From positions 1-48,591 of IMG/VR virus record IMGVR_UViG_3300036851_000128: a stretch of DNA of 48,591 nt. One strand, written 5' to 3'. The position numbers and the translations under genes were made by a program. The notes beneath the pieces were generated by a model. That model made no database searches. It was not told where the DNA came from and saw nothing but the letters and a program-made list of their open reading frames with translations. Shown here piece after piece: positions 7,497 through 30,954 of the stretch; position 1 is the stretch's first letter; every line of letters begins with the position of its first letter. The stretch comes from a virus.

Positions 7497-7508
7497 GAAA
7501 AATATTCC

Positions 7509-7538
7509 TTGACTACGGCGGAATTATTTTCCTATAAG
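7509..7538 (+). promoter_or_regulatory. Sigma70-like promoter after int
   Basis: TTGACT (7509-7514) and TATAAG (7533-7538) are separated by 18 bp in an AT-rich stretch unlike its surroundings. It would drive the two small genes downstream. A hairpin GCGGGC/GCCCGC (7538-7543 with 7555-7560) falls in the start of the transcript, just before the SD AGAAGGAG. Confidence 0.7.
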
Positions 7539-7579
7539 CGGGCGTGGGCGTTGAGCCCGCCTGAGAAGGAGAAATCGAG

Positions 7580-7777
7580 ATGCACAGATCGCTCAGAAAC
7601 AGCATCGAAGCCGAAGCCATTTCACTCGAGGCGGATGCTAGGCGAATAGAGGCGGAATTGAAGGCATCCAATGCGCCGGAAAATTCCATCCGCTTGTATG
7701 TCGAACCGCGCAGAGAGGCCGCCACAAAGCTGCGTGACGCTTTGCGGGCGTGCGATGCGATCATTCCAGTAGGCTGA
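7580..7777 (+). CDS. Small coiled-coil protein, 65 aa
   Basis: 65 residues, almost wholly helical and charged (EAEAISLEADARRIEAELKAS). SD AGAAGGAG precedes ATG 7580, and a clear promoter lies just upstream. The stop shares a base with the start of the XRE gene (TGATG), so the two may act together, perhaps as a regulator pair or toxin-antitoxin-like unit. That pairing is only suggested by gene order. Confidence 0.7.
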   Translation: MHRSLRNSIEAEAISLEADARRIEAELKASNAPENSIRLYVEPRREAATKLRDALRACDAIIPVG

Positions 7778-8022
7778 TGACCCCCGCTGATCTCCGCCGC
7801 GCACGCAAAGCCCTTGGCCTTTCTCAAAAGGGATTGGCTGAGGCGCTGCGGCTATCAGAGAAGAACGGCGGCCGCTCGGTGCGCAATTGGGAGCGCGACG
7901 GCAACACCGTGCCGGGGCCGGTTCAGGTGGCCGTTGAGTTCCTGCTTGCCGAGCGGCGAACAATGGGTGAATCTGCTAACTCAGCGGACAAGACTGCTAA
8001 CCCGGGGTTGACGCATGGCTGA
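7777..8022 (+). CDS. XRE-family helix-turn-helix protein
   Basis: 81 residues. Residues 3-55 form a Cro/C1-type HTH (LRRARKALGLSQKGLAEAL, then GGRSVRNWERDGNTVPGPV) with the usual recognition-helix layout. The C-terminal 20 residues are low-complexity. It is coupled to the preceding coiled-coil gene and adjoins the candidate attP; its 3' end contains two CTGCTAAC repeats that may be integrase arm sites. Confidence 0.82.
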   Translation: MTPADLRRARKALGLSQKGLAEALRLSEKNGGRSVRNWERDGNTVPGPVQVAVEFLLAERRTMGESANSADKTANPGLTHG

Positions 8023-8178
8023 AACCCACGCATTTGCGCCGGATTGGCCCGATGGCGGAGTGGTGACGCAGCGGACTGCAAATCCGCGCTCGCCCCGCAG
8101 AAATCCGACAAAGTTAGCGATGTTGCGCGTTCGTTCACGCCACGGAAAACCGTGGGGTTCGCGGCAAACTGCTAACTC
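7973..8178 (+). other. Candidate attP region with repeated arm-like sites
   Basis: CTGCTAAC occurs at 7973-7980, 7994-8001 and 8169-8176, the first and last extending to CTGCTAACTC. A partial inverted copy (GTTAGC) is at 8113-8118. They flank the tRNA-Cys-like core at 8046-8089 in a 231-bp gene-free gap near int. That is the layout of core plus arm-type sites for a tyrosine integrase. Assignment is inference. Confidence 0.5.
8046..8089 (+). other. Partial tRNA-Cys(GCA)-like sequence, likely att core
   Basis: The sequence reads like the 5' two-thirds of a bacterial tRNA-Cys: acceptor 5' strand GGCCCGA, a GGCGGAGTGGTGACGC D-arm and a perfect anticodon arm GCGGA-CTGCAAA-TCCGC (8071-8087) with anticodon GCA. 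No T-arm or 3' acceptor strand follows, so it is not a functional tRNA. It may be the attP identity segment or a relic of past excision. Usually the 3' half is carried, so the polarity is odd. Confidence 0.6.
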
Positions 8179-8256
8179 GATTCGCCCCCTCCTCCGTAGC
8201 GAGGACCCGAGGGGGTGGAAAGATAGTGGGCACCCCGCATGAGAAGGAATTAGGTG

Positions 8257-8448
8257 ATGCTCACTGACGTTTGTGCTTGTGGTGCGCCAGTTTCGATGAT
8301 GCCCAAGGATCATGTATGCGAGCCGATCCGGACGCCCCCAAGCGAGGCGCAGCGCCTGCATGACGAGTTGATCGCGAAGCTGGATGACATTGCCGCGAAG
8401 CTGGCTCGCAATGACCTCCCCCACGATCGGATCAATGGGTTAGGATGA
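8257..8448 (+). CDS. Hypothetical protein, about 63 aa
   Basis: Short protein with one CACG/CE cysteine group near the N-terminus (VCACGAP...DHVCE) and a helical second half (EAQRLHDELIAKLDDIAAKL). SD GAGAAGGA (8241-8248) favours ATG 8257; GTG 8254 is in frame. It lies between the candidate attP and tnpB. Function unknown. Confidence 0.6.
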   Translation: MLTDVCACGAPVSMMPKDHVCEPIRTPPSEAQRLHDELIAKLDDIAAKLARNDLPHDRINGLG

Positions 8449-8464
8449 AGGAAGGGAATTGAGG

Positions 8465-9661
8465 ATGGCTGAGACGAAGCTACGCCACCTTTCGACGATT
8501 CATCGCGCCTACCGCTATCGGCTTTATCCCACGCCGGATCAGGCTGAACGCCTCGCGCAATTCGCTGGTGCGGCGCGCTTCGTCTATAACCTGGCGCTCG
8601 AACAGCGGCGCGACTGGTGGCGGCAATATCGAGCCGCTGGCCGGTGCATTTCCTTCCCGAGCCAGTCGGCGGAACTGACCGATCTGCGCGCCGAAGTGCC
8701 TTGGCTGGCGGAGATATGCCGCACCCTCTTGGAGCAAGCGCTTCGGGACCTCGATGCCGCTTACGCCGCATTCTTTGCTGGTCATGCGGGGTACCCAGCA
8801 TTCCGAAACCGCAGCCAGCACAGCGGATTTCGAGTGAAGGGCATCGAGTGCCGAATTAAGCCCCTCAACCGGAAGTGGGCACTGGTTCGCCTGCCCAAGT
8901 GCGAACCGATGAAGTTCCGCCTGACGCGCCCCATCGTCGGCACAATCAAGAACGTCACAGTGAAGCTCGAAGCTGGCCGATGGTTCGTGTCCTTCGCGAC
9001 CGAGCGTGAGCACGAAGCGCCCGCCAACGACCTTCCCGCCGTTGGGATCGACCGCGGCATCGCGAACACGCTGAGCCTTTCGACGGGCGAGCACTTCCGC
9101 ATGCCAGACATGGGCAGCGTGATGCGAAAGCGGAAGCGGAAGCGGGCGCAGAAAGCGCTGGCGCGGTGCGTGAAGGGCTCGGCTCGGCGGAAGGTCGCGA
9201 AGCTCCGTGTCGCGCGCCACAGCGCCAAGATAGCGGCCATTCGCAAGCATTGGCTGCACGAACGCAGCACGGACATTGCTCGCCGGTTCGGCGCCGTCAC
9301 AATGGAAGCGCTGCGCATCGCGGACATGACGCGCTCCGGCACAGGCAAGCGCGGGCTGAACCGATCGATCCTGGAACAGGGCTGGGGCGAGCTTGCCCGC
9401 CAGCTCGAATACAAGCTTGCCGAGCGGGGCGGCAGCGTCAGCTACGTCAACCCCGCCTATACCTCGCAGACGTGCTCCGAATGCGGGTCCGTGGCGCGAG
9501 AGAGCCGCAAGAGCCAAGCGGTTTTCGAGTGCGTCGATTGCGGACACCGCGCGCATGCGGACACGAACGCTGCGATCAACATCCACCGCCGAAGCCCGGC
9601 GGGCGTGGAGGGAGCCGGTTGCGGCCCCGTCGAAGCGCGAACTATCAACCTCGCGGCGTAA
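8465..9661 (+). CDS. TnpB-like RNA-guided nuclease (first copy)
   Basis: 398 residues of IS200/IS605 TnpB type. The N-terminal beta-barrel/helical part begins YRYRLYPTPDQAERL. The RuvC triad is intact: D196 (VGIDRG), E281 (VTMEAL) and D366 (HADTNAA). A zinc ribbon has C337, C340, C356 and C359. TnpB proteins cut DNA guided by an omega RNA encoded at the gene's 3' end. No TnpA transposase lies nearby, and no clear transposon ends were found. A 9-bp-stem hairpin spans its stop codon. Confidence 0.9.
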   Translation: MAETKLRHLSTIHRAYRYRLYPTPDQAERLAQFAGAARFVYNLALEQRRDWWRQYRAAGRCISFPSQSAELTDLRAEVPWLAEICRTLLEQALRDLDAAYAAFFAGHAGYPAFRNRSQHSGFRVKGIECRIKPLNRKWALVRLPKCEPMKFRLTRPIVGTIKNVTVKLEAGRWFVSFATEREHEAPANDLPAVGIDRGIANTLSLSTGEHFRMPDMGSVMRKRKRKRAQKALARCVKGSARRKVAKLRVARHSAKIAAIRKHWLHERSTDIARRFGAVTMEALRIADMTRSGTGKRGLNRSILEQGWGELARQLEYKLAERGGSVSYVNPAYTSQTCSECGSVARESRKSQAVFECVDCGHRAHADTNAAINIHRRSPAGVEGAGCGPVEARTINLAA

Positions 9662-9670
9662 GCTGCGAGG
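9649..9670 (+). ncRNA. Candidate omega-RNA 3' hairpin of first TnpB
   Basis: CCTCGCGGC (9649-9657) pairs with GCTGCGAGG (9662-9670) around a GTAA loop that is the tnpB stop codon region, with one G-U pair. In IS200/IS605 elements the right-end palindrome and the omega-RNA scaffold overlap the 3' end of tnpB, so this is the natural place for the guide scaffold. The true RNA boundaries and guide cannot be read from sequence alone. Confidence 0.4.
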
Positions 9671-9697
9671 GGAGGCTGAATCGATCCGGAGTAAGTT

Positions 9698-9847
9698 ATG
9701 ACCAACTACGATCAAATCTATCGCAAGCTCCATCCGCCCACGATGCCATATTCGCCGTGGTCTCGGCAGCGTGAATTGTGCGACCTGTGGCCCGTCGATC
9801 AGCGAGCGTTCCGCGAAATGGTTGACGCCATCCGGAGTAAGTCATGA
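9698..9847 (+). CDS. Small hypothetical protein, 49 aa
   Basis: A 49-codon ORF beginning MTNYDQIYRKLHPP, with SD CCGGAG eight bases before ATG 9698 and an ATGA overlap with the next gene. The stretch TCCGGAGTAAGT before its start recurs exactly at its end (9831-9842), giving the downstream gene the same ribosome binding site. No domain recognised. Confidence 0.65.
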   Translation: MTNYDQIYRKLHPPTMPYSPWSRQRELCDLWPVDQRAFREMVDAIRSKS

Positions 9848-10221
9848 CTCCGCTCGAACGCGCCGCAAGGGCAGTGACTGAGGTGGTTTCCGCGCTTCCG
9901 GCTCTTCCCGGCGTTTATCAACGGGAAGTCGAAGGTTCGGATTGGGAACTTCGCGACATGACGCTGGCCGAGTTCATGGATTCGACGCATCTCGGCACAG
10001 ACTGGTTTGAGGAGTTCATGGCAGGCGCCTCAAAGGCTGTCGCCCTCGCCGTTCTACAGGCTGTCAGGGAGCCGAGCGAGGGGATGGCTGACAAGGGCGA
10101 ATACGTCAATTCCGAGTGGTTGAACGATGCCGCGCCTCTTGGCCAGCGCCGGTACCGCGAACCGGCTAAAGCCGTATTCACCGCCATGATCGACACTCTG
10201 ATAGAGGAAGCTGGACGGTGA
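9844..10221 (+). CDS. Phage protein, ERxARA/PSEGM family (paralogue 1)
   Basis: 125 residues. The N-terminal LERAARAVTEVVSAL, the VREPSEGMADKG motif (about residue 76) and the C-terminal AVFTAMIDTLIEEAG match the next gene in order. The two are tandem paralogues of a phage family with unknown function. ATGA overlaps occur at both ends. Confidence 0.75.
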   Translation: MTPLERAARAVTEVVSALPALPGVYQREVEGSDWELRDMTLAEFMDSTHLGTDWFEEFMAGASKAVALAVLQAVREPSEGMADKGEYVNSEWLNDAAPLGQRRYREPAKAVFTAMIDTLIEEAGR

Positions 10222-10526
10222 ATGATCTGGAGAGACTGGCGCGGGCGATAGCGACTGGGTTGGGCGATGACTTCGACCACGCCTTCGCGTCCAAAGCCGA
10301 GTGGATCGCAGCGCGAGGCGAGAAGGGCGGGCGGTATCGAGACATAAACGAGCCGAGACAGCCGGACTATCTCAGCGCCGCGGAATCTGCCCTCCAAGAG
10401 CTACGTAATCCATCGGAGGGGATGGTGGAGGCGGCTGAGGATCGTGCGCGACCCGACTATGACCCGTCGTACACCGAAGTGTTCAGGGTCATGATCGACC
10501 ACATTCTGGCACAGGAGAAGGTGTAA
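10218..10526 (+). CDS. Phage protein, ERxARA/PSEGM family (paralogue 2)
   Basis: 102 residues: LERLARAIATGLG, then YLSAAESALQELRNPSEGM, then VFRVMIDHILAQE. It shares all three blocks with the upstream gene, with the middle shorter. It is the last gene of the rightward operon and converges on the second tnpB 27 bp away. Function unknown. Confidence 0.75.
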   Translation: MNDLERLARAIATGLGDDFDHAFASKAEWIAARGEKGGRYRDINEPRQPDYLSAAESALQELRNPSEGMVEAAEDRARPDYDPSYTEVFRVMIDHILAQEKV

Positions 10527-10528
10527 AC

Positions 10529-10545
10529 GCCTTTCGGCTCAAGGC
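10529..10545. terminator. Hairpin between convergent operons / second tnpB 3' end
   Basis: GCCTT (10529-10533) and AAGGC (10541-10545) form a stem around a 7-base loop. An outer CGCC/GGCG pairing (10528-10531, 10547-10550) is an alternative. On the minus strand the sequence also holds a GCC-GAAA-GGC tetraloop. It sits in the 27-bp gap between converging transcripts, so it may terminate both, and may also be the end of an omega RNA for the leftward tnpB. Confidence 0.45.
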
Positions 10546-10553
10546 CGGCGAGC

Positions 10554-11684
10554 TTATAGTGAGACCGCAAGATAGCGTTCCCCTACATCAGGGCGGCTTA
10601 CTACGCCCCTTGGCGAAAGGGCTCTCTCGCCAAGCCGAGCATGATTGCGCGCCGCGTTGACGTCGCTGTGCGCTCGGCAACCACATTTGCAGACGAAGTG
10701 ATGCTTCACCCGCAAACCTATCTGACCACAGTCGGAGCAACTCCTGCTGGTGTAGGCAGGATCGGTAAAGATCGCGGCAATGCCAAGCTCCGCAGCCTTA
10801 TAGGCGGTGAAGTCTCGCAACTGCCGAAACGCCCATCGGTGGAGCCTGGTGCGCATTCGCAGGCCCGCTCTAATGCGGTCGCGAATGTGGGTGAGGTTTT
10901 CCATGGCGATGGCCGTCGCACCGATGGTCACAGCCTCGGCAACGACTTCCTTGCTAACGACGTGGTTCACGTGACGCATGTGCCGCCGCTCTCTACCAGA
11001 GACCTTCCGCAAGAGCTGCTTAGCGCTCTTGGAGCCGTTGGACTGGAGACGTCGGCGCAGGGCGAGATGCTTGTCACGTTCATGGCGGAGATGCCCGCCG
11101 CCCCAGAGTTTGCCCGAACTGGTGGCGGCAAGGTTGTTCTCTCCGACGTCGACTCCGAGGACTGCCCCCGAAGTCTTAGGCTCGATCTCCTTTTCCAAAA
11201 TGAGGTTGAAGAACCACTGCCCCCTGCGGCAGTGCAACTCAGCTTCTTTCGCCTTGCCCCAAGCGAGCAACTTGGCCTGATGTCGGCCAATCAGCAGCGC
11301 GACCGTGACACGCCCGCCAAGAGTATTCAGCGAGAGGCGGTCGCCTCGCAAGGTATAGGTCCGCTTGTCGAAATGAACCGCGCCGCGGCGGAAGCTAATT
11401 GCCGGAACCGGTGCGCCTTTAGGCATCTGGCCGTTGGCTTTGAGCGTCTTGTACGCGGCGGTGACGCTGCGAAGCACGTTACAGCACATCTGCGCACCAA
11501 GTGGTGTCTCGCAACGAAGACGGCGATAGGCGAGCGCGTGAAGCCCGTAGCGATTCCAGCAGCGAGACTCGATCACAGTTGGCACCAAGAGATTGCAGGC
11601 AGCGGCATATGCTGCTTGCAGCGCGACAAGCTCGGCTTGCGCCGCCGCGTCAGCTTCGACTTTGATCGAGACTGTCCGGAACAC
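10554..11684 (-). CDS. TnpB-like RNA-guided nuclease (second copy)
   Basis: 376 residues, divergent from the copy at 8465. The RuvC triad is intact: D179 (LGVDVGENN), E262 (IAMENL) and D341 (HSDVNAA). The zinc ribbon has C316 and C319, then an unusual CKCGC (C332, C334, C336). GTG start 10 bp after the Rz stop places it at the end of the lysis operon. No TnpA is present. With the triad intact it is probably a nuclease and not a nuclease-dead TldR-type repressor. Confidence 0.87.
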   Translation of the reverse strand: MFRTVSIKVEADAAAQAELVALQAAYAAACNLLVPTVIESRCWNRYGLHALAYRRLRCETPLGAQMCCNVLRSVTAAYKTLKANGQMPKGAPVPAISFRRGAVHFDKRTYTLRGDRLSLNTLGGRVTVALLIGRHQAKLLAWGKAKEAELHCRRGQWFFNLILEKEIEPKTSGAVLGVDVGENNLAATSSGKLWGGGHLRHERDKHLALRRRLQSNGSKSAKQLLRKVSGRERRHMRHVNHVVSKEVVAEAVTIGATAIAMENLTHIRDRIRAGLRMRTRLHRWAFRQLRDFTAYKAAELGIAAIFTDPAYTSRSCSDCGQIGLRVKHHFVCKCGCRAHSDVNAARNHARLGERALSPRGVVSRPDVGERYLAVSL

Positions 11685-11694
11685 TTTCAGCAGC

Positions 11695-12219
11695 TCAGTC
11701 GCCTCCTTCGTTCGTGTTTACCTCACCCTGCGCTTTCGTCCAAGCGATCAGTGCGATAAGCTGGTCGGTGTTGTCCTGCGCGGCCTTCAGGAGGGGAGGA
11801 ATGTTTTCACAGCCGGTTCCCGCGTAAGCGAGGCAGGTGGCTTCGCGGGAGGCGGACACGTCCGCAGTTCCGGCACTGCCGGTATAGGTGCGGGCCGTGG
11901 TGCGCAGCCGCTCATAGCGAGCATCAGCAGTAGCGAGCTTGCCCTGATATTCATCTTCGATCCTTTCGGTGATAGCTTGCTGTTCGGAGCGCACGCGGTT
12001 GACATTCTCCGCGTCCTTGCGCCGGGCGATTTCCGCGGCCTGCCGGTAGTTGGCGACCGTGAGCGCGTGGGCTTGCTTTTCCGCCGCCGCGGCCTTCTTC
12101 CAATGCCGGGCATCGCCCCGCGCGATCAGCAGCATGATCCCGAGCACGGCGATAGCGAGGCCACCAGCTACGAGCTTCCAGTTCTTGAGCGCCCATTGAG
12201 CGGCGAGAGCGAATGTCAT
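11695..12219 (-). CDS. Rz-like inner-membrane spanin
   Basis: 174 residues. An N-terminal transmembrane segment (about 15-33, KLVAGGLAIAVLGIMLLIA) precedes a long periplasmic coiled coil (about 37-110), the form of i-spanins. It would connect to the outer-membrane Rz1 encoded inside it and fuse the membranes at lysis. The start overlaps the upstream ORF stop (ATGA). It follows endolysin and membrane proteins in the lysis cassette. Confidence 0.85.
   Translation of the reverse strand: MTFALAAQWALKNWKLVAGGLAIAVLGIMLLIARGDARHWKKAAAAEKQAHALTVANYRQAAEIARRKDAENVNRVRSEQQAITERIEDEYQGKLATADARYERLRTTARTYTGSAGTADVSASREATCLAYAGTGCENIPPLLKAAQDNTDQLIALIAWTKAQGEVNTNEGGD
11787..11954 (-). CDS. Rz1-like o-spanin lipoprotein nested in Rz
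   Basis: 55 residues in a different frame, wholly inside the Rz gene. MNIRASSLLLMLAMSGC is a lipoprotein signal with lipobox LAMSGC (lipidated C17), followed by a short proline-rich mature part (APRPAPIPAVPE, PPPAKPPAS). This is the classic Rz1 design. An AAAGGA SD precedes ATG 11954. Confidence 0.85.
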   Translation of the reverse strand: MNIRASSLLLMLAMSGCAPRPAPIPAVPELRTCPPPAKPPASLTREPAVKTFLPS

Positions 12220-12455
12220 GTCCTATTGCCTTGATGGGGGTGGGGGTGTAGGAATTGGGGGCTGCGGCGGAAGCGTCCTGTAGCGGGCTGAATCATGGTG
12301 TGGTCGCTACCCATGCCATCGCGACTTCGCCGCAGCACTTCCCCTCCCCCTATCCCCGTGGTAAGAGAATGGGGCTGCGGCGGGGGCTGTCCTAGGCCAA
12401 GTCCGCAAGGGAGCGACGGGTTGCCGACGTGAAACTTGCTTCGCCGCCGCAGCAT
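12216..12455 (-). CDS. Possible small gene in lysis cassette, 79 aa
   Basis: The ORF is framed exactly by TGATG at its start and ATGA at its end, which argues for translation. The protein is low-complexity, rich in Pro, His, Gly and Arg, without membrane segment or motif. The DNA beneath contains alternating direct and inverted CTGCGGCG repeats, so a structured non-coding spacer is an alternative. Confidence 0.4.
   Translation of the reverse strand: MLRRRSKFHVGNPSLPCGLGLGQPPPQPHSLTTGIGGGEVLRRSRDGMGSDHTMIQPATGRFRRSPQFLHPHPHQGNRT
12258..12453. repeat. Alternating direct/inverted CTGCGGCG repeats
   Basis: GGGGCTGCGGCGG occurs at 12258-12270 and again at 12371-12383. Inverted copies lie between and after: CGCCGCAGC at 12328-12336 and CGCCGCCGCAGC at 12442-12453. 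Spacing is about 45-70 bp. The order direct-inverted-direct-inverted allows several mutually exclusive hairpins. Confidence 0.6.
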
Positions 12456-12634
12456 CACCGCAGCGCACCCAACGGCAGCGCGCCGGGGAACAGCACCGAA
12501 ACCACCCACAGCACCGCCAGCACGATCACGACCACGCGGACGATCTTCCGCATCGTGTCGTCCATCGGGATTTGCGTGATGGCCCAGAGCAAAACGCCAA
12601 TGACGATCAGGGTTACGATAAGGGTGATAAGCAT
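12455..12634 (-). CDS. Small two-segment membrane protein, 59 aa
   Basis: 59 residues with two hydrophobic helices, MLITLIVTLIVIGVLLWAI and IVRVVVIVLAVLWVVSVLF, joined by a short polar loop (TQIPMDDTMRK). A start near GAAGGAACCTG supports it. Small proteins of this shape are common in phage lysis regions; it could be a holin or pinholin-like protein. Its stop couples to the next ORF by TGATG. Confidence 0.72.
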   Translation of the reverse strand: MLITLIVTLIVIGVLLWAITQIPMDDTMRKIVRVVVIVLAVLWVVSVLFPGALPLGALR

Positions 12635-12649
12635 TTCAGGTTCCTTCAG

Positions 12650-13039
12650 TTACCCTTTCCCAAGGGCGGTTAGGATCGTGAACAGCGTTCCGGCAATGCC
12701 CACTCCGCCGATCGCGTAGGCGATGATCAGCGCTGTGCCGGCGGATTTACCGCTCGCCTTTGCCGCGGCGTCCTCCAGAAATTTCAGCCGAAGCTCGGTC
12801 TGCTCCTTGTTGGCGAAGTTGCGCTGCTGATCGGTGACCACGCCGCGCAGTTCGTTCAGGTTCTCAAGCCGCTTGTCCGATGCGTTCTCGGCTTTCAGGA
12901 TGGCCTTTTCGGATGCCGTCAGCGCCGCTGTGACGGCTTTTTCAGCGGCGGCTAGGGCAGTTCCCACGGCCTCCTTGTCGGCTTGCCGGAGCGCGTCGAA
13001 ATGCTCTTTGAGCGTGGAAAAGGTCCACTGCTCACTCAC
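12650..13039 (-). CDS. Coiled-coil protein with C-terminal membrane anchor
   Basis: 129 residues. A long helical coiled coil (about 8-95, Ala/Glu/Lys-rich, LKEHFDALRQADKEA) is followed by one transmembrane helix (about 101-124). This is a frequent phage lysis-region protein sometimes annotated as a holin-like or membrane protein. Start overlaps the upstream stop by 4 bp. Role in lysis is inferred from position. Confidence 0.78.
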   Translation of the reverse strand: MSEQWTFSTLKEHFDALRQADKEAVGTALAAAEKAVTAALTASEKAILKAENASDKRLENLNELRGVVTDQQRNFANKEQTELRLKFLEDAAAKASGKSAGTALIIAYAIGGVGIAGTLFTILTALGKG

Positions 13040-30150: not shown

Positions 30151-30954
30151 CTATGTCGCGTGGGCTTCCAAATACTTTATCGCAGCTCGCAGACGCTCCG
30201 GATCGTCGCAGAAATTGCCTAGGCCGCCGTTGCACTGCGAACAGAGCAACGCGCGAACTGCGCCAGTCTTGTGGCAGTGATCAACGGACAGATCGCGCGG
30301 GGTTCCAAGAGTCCGATGCATCACACGCTCTTCTTCGCGGCAAATCGCACACCGATTTCCTTGCGCCGCTTTCATGGCTTCATATTCGACAGCGGAAAGC
30401 CCGTAAGCCTTCATCACCACACTATGCCGACGCTGGACAACGCGATCCGCAGCCATGAGGCGTGAGTATCTCAGCGGGTCATCGCTGTGTTTCAGCCCTT
30501 CAAATTTCGGCGCCACCCAGCGAAAGTTAGTCGCGCTCCACGGCTCTTTGGGGGACAGTTTGCGAAGCTTGTGTTCTGGCGTTGGCCGTTCACCCACATC
30601 CCTCACGAACTGCCAAAAGTCCTTCCACGATTCTGGGAACTCAGCACGCGCCTGATTTCTGATCCAATAATATGTGTGCGCTAGGGGGTGGTCGTTTATA
30701 TGGCCCAAGCGGTCAAATCGCTCGTGCTCAGCCACCCCATGCTTCCTGAACCGCCGGTAGTGCATGTCACAGTAGCCTTGGGCCACGCTCAGATTTGAGC
30801 ACGTGGCAACCGAACACGGCTTGCGGACTTTGACGTACTCGGGCGTGCCATTTTTCTTCTCGCGATAGTAGCACGCTGCGCAGAGCCCGTGCCCCGCTAT
30901 TCGATAGACTTGCTTGGAGCAAAATGTGCACGTTTTCAGTGTTTTGGCGCGCAT
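30151..30954 (-). CDS. Endonuclease VII-type HNH (His-Me finger) nuclease
   Basis: 267 residues. N-terminal cysteine pairs (CTFCSKQ...[15 protein letters not shown]...GYCDMHYRR) form zinc-knuckle DNA-binding units. The C-terminus has the EndoVII core CAIC...[41 protein letters not shown]. It interrupts the late head operon, as homing nucleases often do; recombination or packaging nuclease is an alternative. Its SD lies within a terminator hairpin, see 30957-30988. Confidence 0.88.

What the first reader, a model, noticed from the sequence alone, without database searches (positions are those of the whole stretch)
8465..11684. Two divergent, catalytically intact TnpB-like nucleases without TnpA, placed around the end of the early operon
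Both proteins retain the RuvC D-E-D triad and a zinc ribbon but differ clearly in sequence: one has a normal C..C zinc ribbon, the other an unusual CKCGC. Neither is near a TnpA gene or obvious transposon ends. One lies next to the candidate attP, the other ends the lysis operon. This points to TnpB kept by the phage for its own use, such as killing competing phages or prophages, protecting att, or homing, in two separately acquired versions.
Basis: partly seen in the sequence, partly recalled or inferred. Interest (0 to 1): 0.75.

Follow-up and report, generated by a model that had tools for sequence, protein, structure and literature searches.

The report
Two stranded TnpB transposon nucleases
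A temperate phage carries two unrelated but apparently intact RNA-guided TnpB nucleases that are leftovers of two separate small jumping genes which lost their transposase; this is common in kind, and their likeliest job, cutting phage copies that lack the insertion, is suggested but not shown by the sequence.

Summary
Both genes are real: TnpB-A (8459/8465-9661, +) and TnpB-B (10554-11684, -). Both are guided TnpBs with intact RuvC D-E-D and zinc ribbon, about 30% identical, and no Y1 TnpA lies in the window. 'No obvious transposon ends' is wrong for A: its 3' end carries the hairpin plus GGGGAGGCTGA right end shared with relatives in unrelated flanks, and silent positions there are constrained (86% versus 46% synonymous identity to the nearest relative), as expected for an omega RNA. 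B has only a plausible right-end remnant (..TTTAC). All three close relatives of B, and many of A, carry a Y1 TnpA, so both come from IS200/IS605 elements, acquired separately. B's 'unusual' CKCGC is mostly its clade's CxCG pattern. None of 50 related phage records has a TnpB, so both look like recent arrivals. Best reading: two TnpA-less (IS1341-type) insertions whose TnpBs, if expressed, would cut the empty version of their own site, giving retention, homing or exclusion of sibling phages. Expression, cleavage and phage benefit are not shown. New members of a known kind, of modest interest because directly testable.

The parts
8459..9661 (+). TnpB-A coding sequence (TTG 8459 or ATG 8465); RuvC codons D198 at 9050, E283 at 9305, D368 at 9560
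8436..9679 (+). Proposed extent of the A element, 1244 bp; right boundary well supported, left boundary (after GGATCAA) tentative
9604..9679 (+). Predicted omega RNA scaffold core and right end of A: conserved stem-loop, hairpin 9649-9670, GGGGAGGCTGA terminus (5' end of the RNA unknown)
9680..9699 (+). Predicted guide of A, ATCGATCCGGAGTAAGTTAT (phage flank)
   Evidence: inference from the right end
10554..11684 (-). TnpB-B coding sequence (GTG start); RuvC codons D179, E262, D341; zinc ribbon CxxC/CKCGC
10523..10553 (-). Candidate right-end remnant of B ending GTTTAC
   Evidence: alignment with L140 and L169; no unusual folding stability
10503..10522 (-). Predicted guide of B, ACCTTCTCCTGTGCCAGAAT (antisense to the 3' end of orf10218)
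   Evidence: inference
11695..12219 (-). Rz-like spanin gene directly upstream of B (context)
   Evidence: embedded lipobox ORF; no PHROG or Pfam hit

Best explanation
A and B are two independent insertions of IS200/IS605-superfamily elements reduced to TnpB (IS1341-type), placed where the phage's early (+) and lysis (-) gene blocks meet. A keeps its right end and a constrained omega RNA; B keeps at most a right-end remnant and has lost its left end and TnpA. Each TnpB would bind an RNA made from the 3' end of its own transcript; the last ~16-20 nt of that RNA are the phage sequence next to the element. The complex would cut DNA carrying the uninterrupted site next to the proper TAM, that is, sibling or co-infecting phage genomes lacking the insertion; recombination then copies the element in, or the competitor is lost. 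Shown here: family, triad, absent TnpA, right end and RNA constraint of A, separate origins, absence from 50 related phage records. Inferred: expression, RNP formation, TAM, cleavage and outcome.
For: Family and triad. TnpA in relatives: B's three closest have it in tandem, many A relatives have it divergent or in tandem. Right end of A shared with L178 exactly (CTGCGAGGGGAGGCTGA) before the flanks diverge, same terminus in L148, L179, L180, L186. Synonymous-codon identity A/L178 0.86 in the last 32 codons against 0.46 elsewhere; stem-loop with changes on both sides at 5 of 14 pairs; terminal hairpin z -3.85. Removing 8436-9679 joins the upstream small gene in frame to a C-terminus whose stop overlaps the next ATG. 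TnpB absent from 50 related phage records. Mechanism from ISDra2 (PMC8612924) and drive in plasmids (PMC11870625).
Against: No transcript, RNP or cleavage data. No empty-site phage matching either guide was found. The left ends are not recognised and the TAM is unsettled. B's 3' region shows neither silent-site conservation nor a stable terminal hairpin, so B's omega RNA is weakly supported. The native start codon of A has changed (GTG-like to ACG) and the N-terminus is extended. Canonical left-end loss may equally mean decay.
Confidence: 0.62

Rival explanations
1. Decaying passengers: TnpA-less IS remnants that reached the phage recently and have no present activity; the intact ORFs reflect youth rather than selection.
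For: Left ends and TnpA are missing. B's right-end region looks unconstrained. TnpB is absent from 50 relatives, so the insertions may be too young to have decayed. Several A-type relatives elsewhere are broken by stops or frameshifts.
Against: Two full-length ORFs with intact triads and zinc ribbons; constrained RNA region and sharp right end in A. The constraint was measured between lineages, however, and does not prove present activity in this phage.
Confidence: 0.27
2. Domesticated phage genes with a dedicated purpose (defence against unrelated phages, att protection).
For: TnpA is missing; B lies in line with the lysis genes; RNA-guided TnpB relatives with phage-serving roles exist (TldR, PMC13418256).
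Against: Right end of A still present; predicted guides match only the element's own flank in about 5.3 million positions searched, apart from one chance hit for B; no conserved partner gene; attP not verified; absent from relatives.
Confidence: 0.08
3. Nuclease-dead repressors (TldR-like) or small type V-F CRISPR effectors.
For: Sequence kinship to Cas12f; TldRs are phage-encoded TnpB relatives.
Against: TldRs are RuvC-dead, whereas both triads here are intact. No CRISPR-like array in 7500-12700. Cas12f2 scores are far below the NCBIfam cut-off.
Confidence: 0.03

Closest known systems
ISDra2 TnpB (IS200/IS605), Deinococcus radiodurans
   Same: A aligns end to end (E 2.8e-45); same triad and zinc ribbon; RNA expected from the gene's 3' end plus right end (PMC8612924)
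   Different: ISDra2 has TnpA and both ends; A has neither TnpA nor a recognisable left end; different right-end terminus
IS1341-type (TnpB-only) elements
   Same: Lone tnpB without Y1 TnpA, with a right end (A)
   Different: Both ends of the element could not be fixed here; B may be a deletion remnant of an IS605-type element
TnpA-tnpB IS605-type elements in Methylomarinovum plasmid (L140) and genome G838 (L169)
   Same: Closest kin of B (57-59%), same CxCG zinc knuckle
   Different: They keep TnpA in tandem; L169 keeps a left-end hairpin
IS200/605 TnpB drive in plasmids (PMC11870625)
   Same: Proposed way of working: cutting copies that lack the insertion
   Different: Shown for plasmids with TnpA/B elements, not for phages or lone TnpB
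TldR
   Same: TnpB relatives carried by temperate phages
   Different: TldRs have an inactivated RuvC and novel partner genes; A and B have neither

Membership tests
TnpB RNA-guided endonuclease (NF040570) | Score above the curated cut-off of the family | tested here: met
   282.7 and 155.1 bits against 100
TnpB RNA-guided endonuclease (NF040570) | RuvC D-E-D and zinc ribbon | tested here: met
TnpB RNA-guided endonuclease (NF040570) | Omega RNA from the 3' end and right end | tested here: inconclusive
   A: silent-site constraint, paired changes, right end; B: weak; no RNA data for either
TnpB RNA-guided endonuclease (NF040570) | TAM-dependent RNA-guided cleavage | not testable with these tools
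   needs an assay
IS605-type element | Y1 TnpA next to tnpB | tested here: not met
   no TnpA in the window
IS1341-type (TnpB-only) element | Lone tnpB with transposon ends | tested here: inconclusive
   right end of A found, left end tentative; B right end only a candidate
TldR | Inactivated RuvC | tested here: not met
   triads intact
Cas12f / type V-F CRISPR | CRISPR array and Cas12f-level score | tested here: not met
   no array; Cas12f2 91 and 81 bits against a cut-off of 450
Phage homing endonuclease (functional class) | Cuts the empty allele and is copied into it | not testable with these tools
   no empty-site phage found

The most novel reading that the evidence does not exclude
TnpB-A belongs to a small TnpA-less lineage (A, L178, L179, L180, L186, L148) that now lives largely in phages and prophages and persists by RNA-guided homing or exclusion at gene junctions, with the guide rewritten by each insertion site, rather than by transposition; B is a second, unrelated case in the same phage, placed under lysis-gene transcription.
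Probability: 0.2. Interest if true: 0.6.

Novelty: new member of a known kind. Interest (0 to 1): 0.33.

Why it matters
If active, the pair would let one test in a single temperate phage whether TnpB without TnpA acts as a drive or exclusion system between co-infecting phages, extending what has been shown for TnpB-bearing IS in plasmids. If inactive, it is an ordinary case of IS remnants in a phage. Either way, the shared right end and RNA constraint of the A lineage give ready-made guide predictions.

Tried and rejected
Single-protein scans for A and B relatives in viral contigs, and for B in genome contigs, found none; an A+L148 alignment did find them. Nucleotide search of window 1-25000 against phages: no match. 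Search for empty sites by guide sequence: none for A; one chance match for B. Left-end consensus scans from relatives: nothing upstream of A or B. CRISPR array: none. TldR reading rejected by intact triads. att protection not supported: no tRNA gene called and the 27-mer absent from 20 genomes. A possible rule that the A lineage inserts at TCAT, the reverse complement of an ATGA start codon, with the left end supplying a Shine-Dalgarno, was considered; placing the left boundary after the phage's own GGAGG explains at least three of the four loci more simply, so the TAM is left open. A resemblance of the sequence before B's start (GGAGGCGACTGA) to the tnpA tail of L140 is too short to use. Looking for more A-lineage members in the genus of G252 gave only the known one.

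Full report
What is there. The window is a 48.6-kb virus record with an integrase (PF00589), terminase, portal and endolysin genes. Two ORFs at the stated places encode TnpB: A is 8459/8465-9661 (+), B is 10554-11684 (-), 0.9 kb apart. Both pass the curated cut-off of the guided-TnpB family. A aligns end to end with ISDra2 TnpB, B over its RuvC half with Cas12f-type structures. The triads are intact (A D198/E283/D368; B D179/E262/D341). The two proteins share about 30% identity and fall in clades separated by a branch with full support.

No transposase, but ends are not absent. Four Y1 TnpA queries find nothing in the window. Relatives show where the genes came from. B's three closest relatives (59%, 57% and 46% identity) each have a Y1 TnpA directly upstream in tandem. 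Many relatives of A at about 45-55% identity carry a divergent or tandem TnpA. Others lack it; on the tree the supported branches alone force at least five changes of this label, with no clustering beyond chance. TnpB without TnpA is therefore recurrent rather than a mark of domestication. In phage records, proteins like TnpB-A occur in 541 of 50,697, and one Y1 TnpA query matches 100; the two searches differ in sensitivity, so this is only a rough guide.

The right end of A. Two near-identical copies in genome G233 define canonical ends: hairpin plus GGGGAAGATGTTAA at the right. A and its closest relatives end instead in a hairpin followed by ..GCTGA. A and the viral-contig relative L178 share CTGCGAGGGGAGGCTGA exactly and then diverge (ATCGATCC.. 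versus GAAAGCC..). L148, L179, L180 and L186 end in the same way. The RNA region upstream is constrained: synonymous-codon identity between A and L178 is 0.86 in the last 32 codons against 0.46 elsewhere. The effect is smaller against L180 (0.73 versus 0.43) and not clearly special against L148. A stem-loop (CGUGGAGGG..CCCGUCGAAGCG) is conserved, with changes on both sides at 5 of 14 pairs. The terminal hairpin of A is more stable than shuffles (z -3.85). This fits an omega RNA; the RNA itself was not observed.

The left end of A is not settled. A boundary after GGATCAA (8435/8436) gives an element of 1244 bp. With it, the upstream small gene reads in frame into the right flank and ends ..DRIKSIRSKL* with its stop overlapping the next gene's ATG, which is the gene spacing seen just downstream, but the frame alone has a one-in-three chance. 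The canonical left-end hairpin is missing. In four viral-contig relatives two placements of the left boundary are possible, so no TAM is claimed. The native start of A now reads ACG, and the protein has about 13 extra residues at its N-terminus.

B begins 10 bp after the stop of the Rz-like gene, with no left end or TnpA remnant that can be defended. Its 3' side can be lined up with relatives (ATAA..GTTTAC), but the hairpin there is not unusually stable and silent sites are not conserved. B's omega RNA is therefore only a candidate. The CKCGC knuckle is CxCG as in L140 and L169, with one extra Cys.

Recency and rarity. None of 50 related phage records found through the terminase and endolysin carries a TnpB, although many are fragments. 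TnpBs of these types are rare in the sampled Sphingomonadaceae (3 of 398 genomes with A; B gives only weak matches in the same three), and B-like proteins are rare in the phylum (1 of 398 at E 1e-20).

How it most likely works. TnpB uses an RNA made of its own gene's 3' end and right end, whose last ~16 nt are flanking DNA, and cuts DNA carrying that flank next to the TAM (PMC8612924). With TnpA gone, the remaining use is against copies that lack the insertion. In plasmids this acts as a drive (PMC11870625). By analogy, in phages it would act between co-infecting or sibling genomes. Predicted guides are ATCGATCCGGAGTAAGTTAT (A) and ACCTTCTCCTGTGCCAGAAT (B). No empty-site phage was found to support this. 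Decay without function is the main rival.

Judgement. This is a new member of a known kind, of modest interest because it is directly testable.

Noticed in passing
window 30154-30954 (-): Recombination endonuclease VII-like protein (PF02945, E 1.2e-22) in the late region: a candidate free-standing homing endonuclease, so a third nuclease of possibly selfish origin in this phage.
   Followed up: no
L178, L179, L180, L186 (viral contigs), around the TnpB start: In all four, the TnpA-less TnpB sits 20-55 nt from the start codon (TCAT read on the TnpB strand) of a divergent small phage gene with a GGAG-type Shine-Dalgarno between them; whether that Shine-Dalgarno belongs to the element or the phage is unresolved.
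   Followed up: partly
window 9674-9702 and 9820-9848: 29-nt direct repeat (83%) covering the end of two neighbouring small genes (..IRSKL* and ..IRSKS*) and the overlapping ATG of the next gene; the first copy overlaps the right end of A.
   Followed up: partly
window 8048-8110: Stretch resembling the 5' half of a tRNA-Cys, possibly the att core; ARAGORN calls no tRNA and an exact 27-mer is absent from 20 Sphingomonadaceae genomes.
   Followed up: partly
L170 (genome G252) 9267-11126: The genomic relative of A sits directly behind a serine recombinase gene whose last codons it appears to replace, near a tyrosine integrase.
   Followed up: partly
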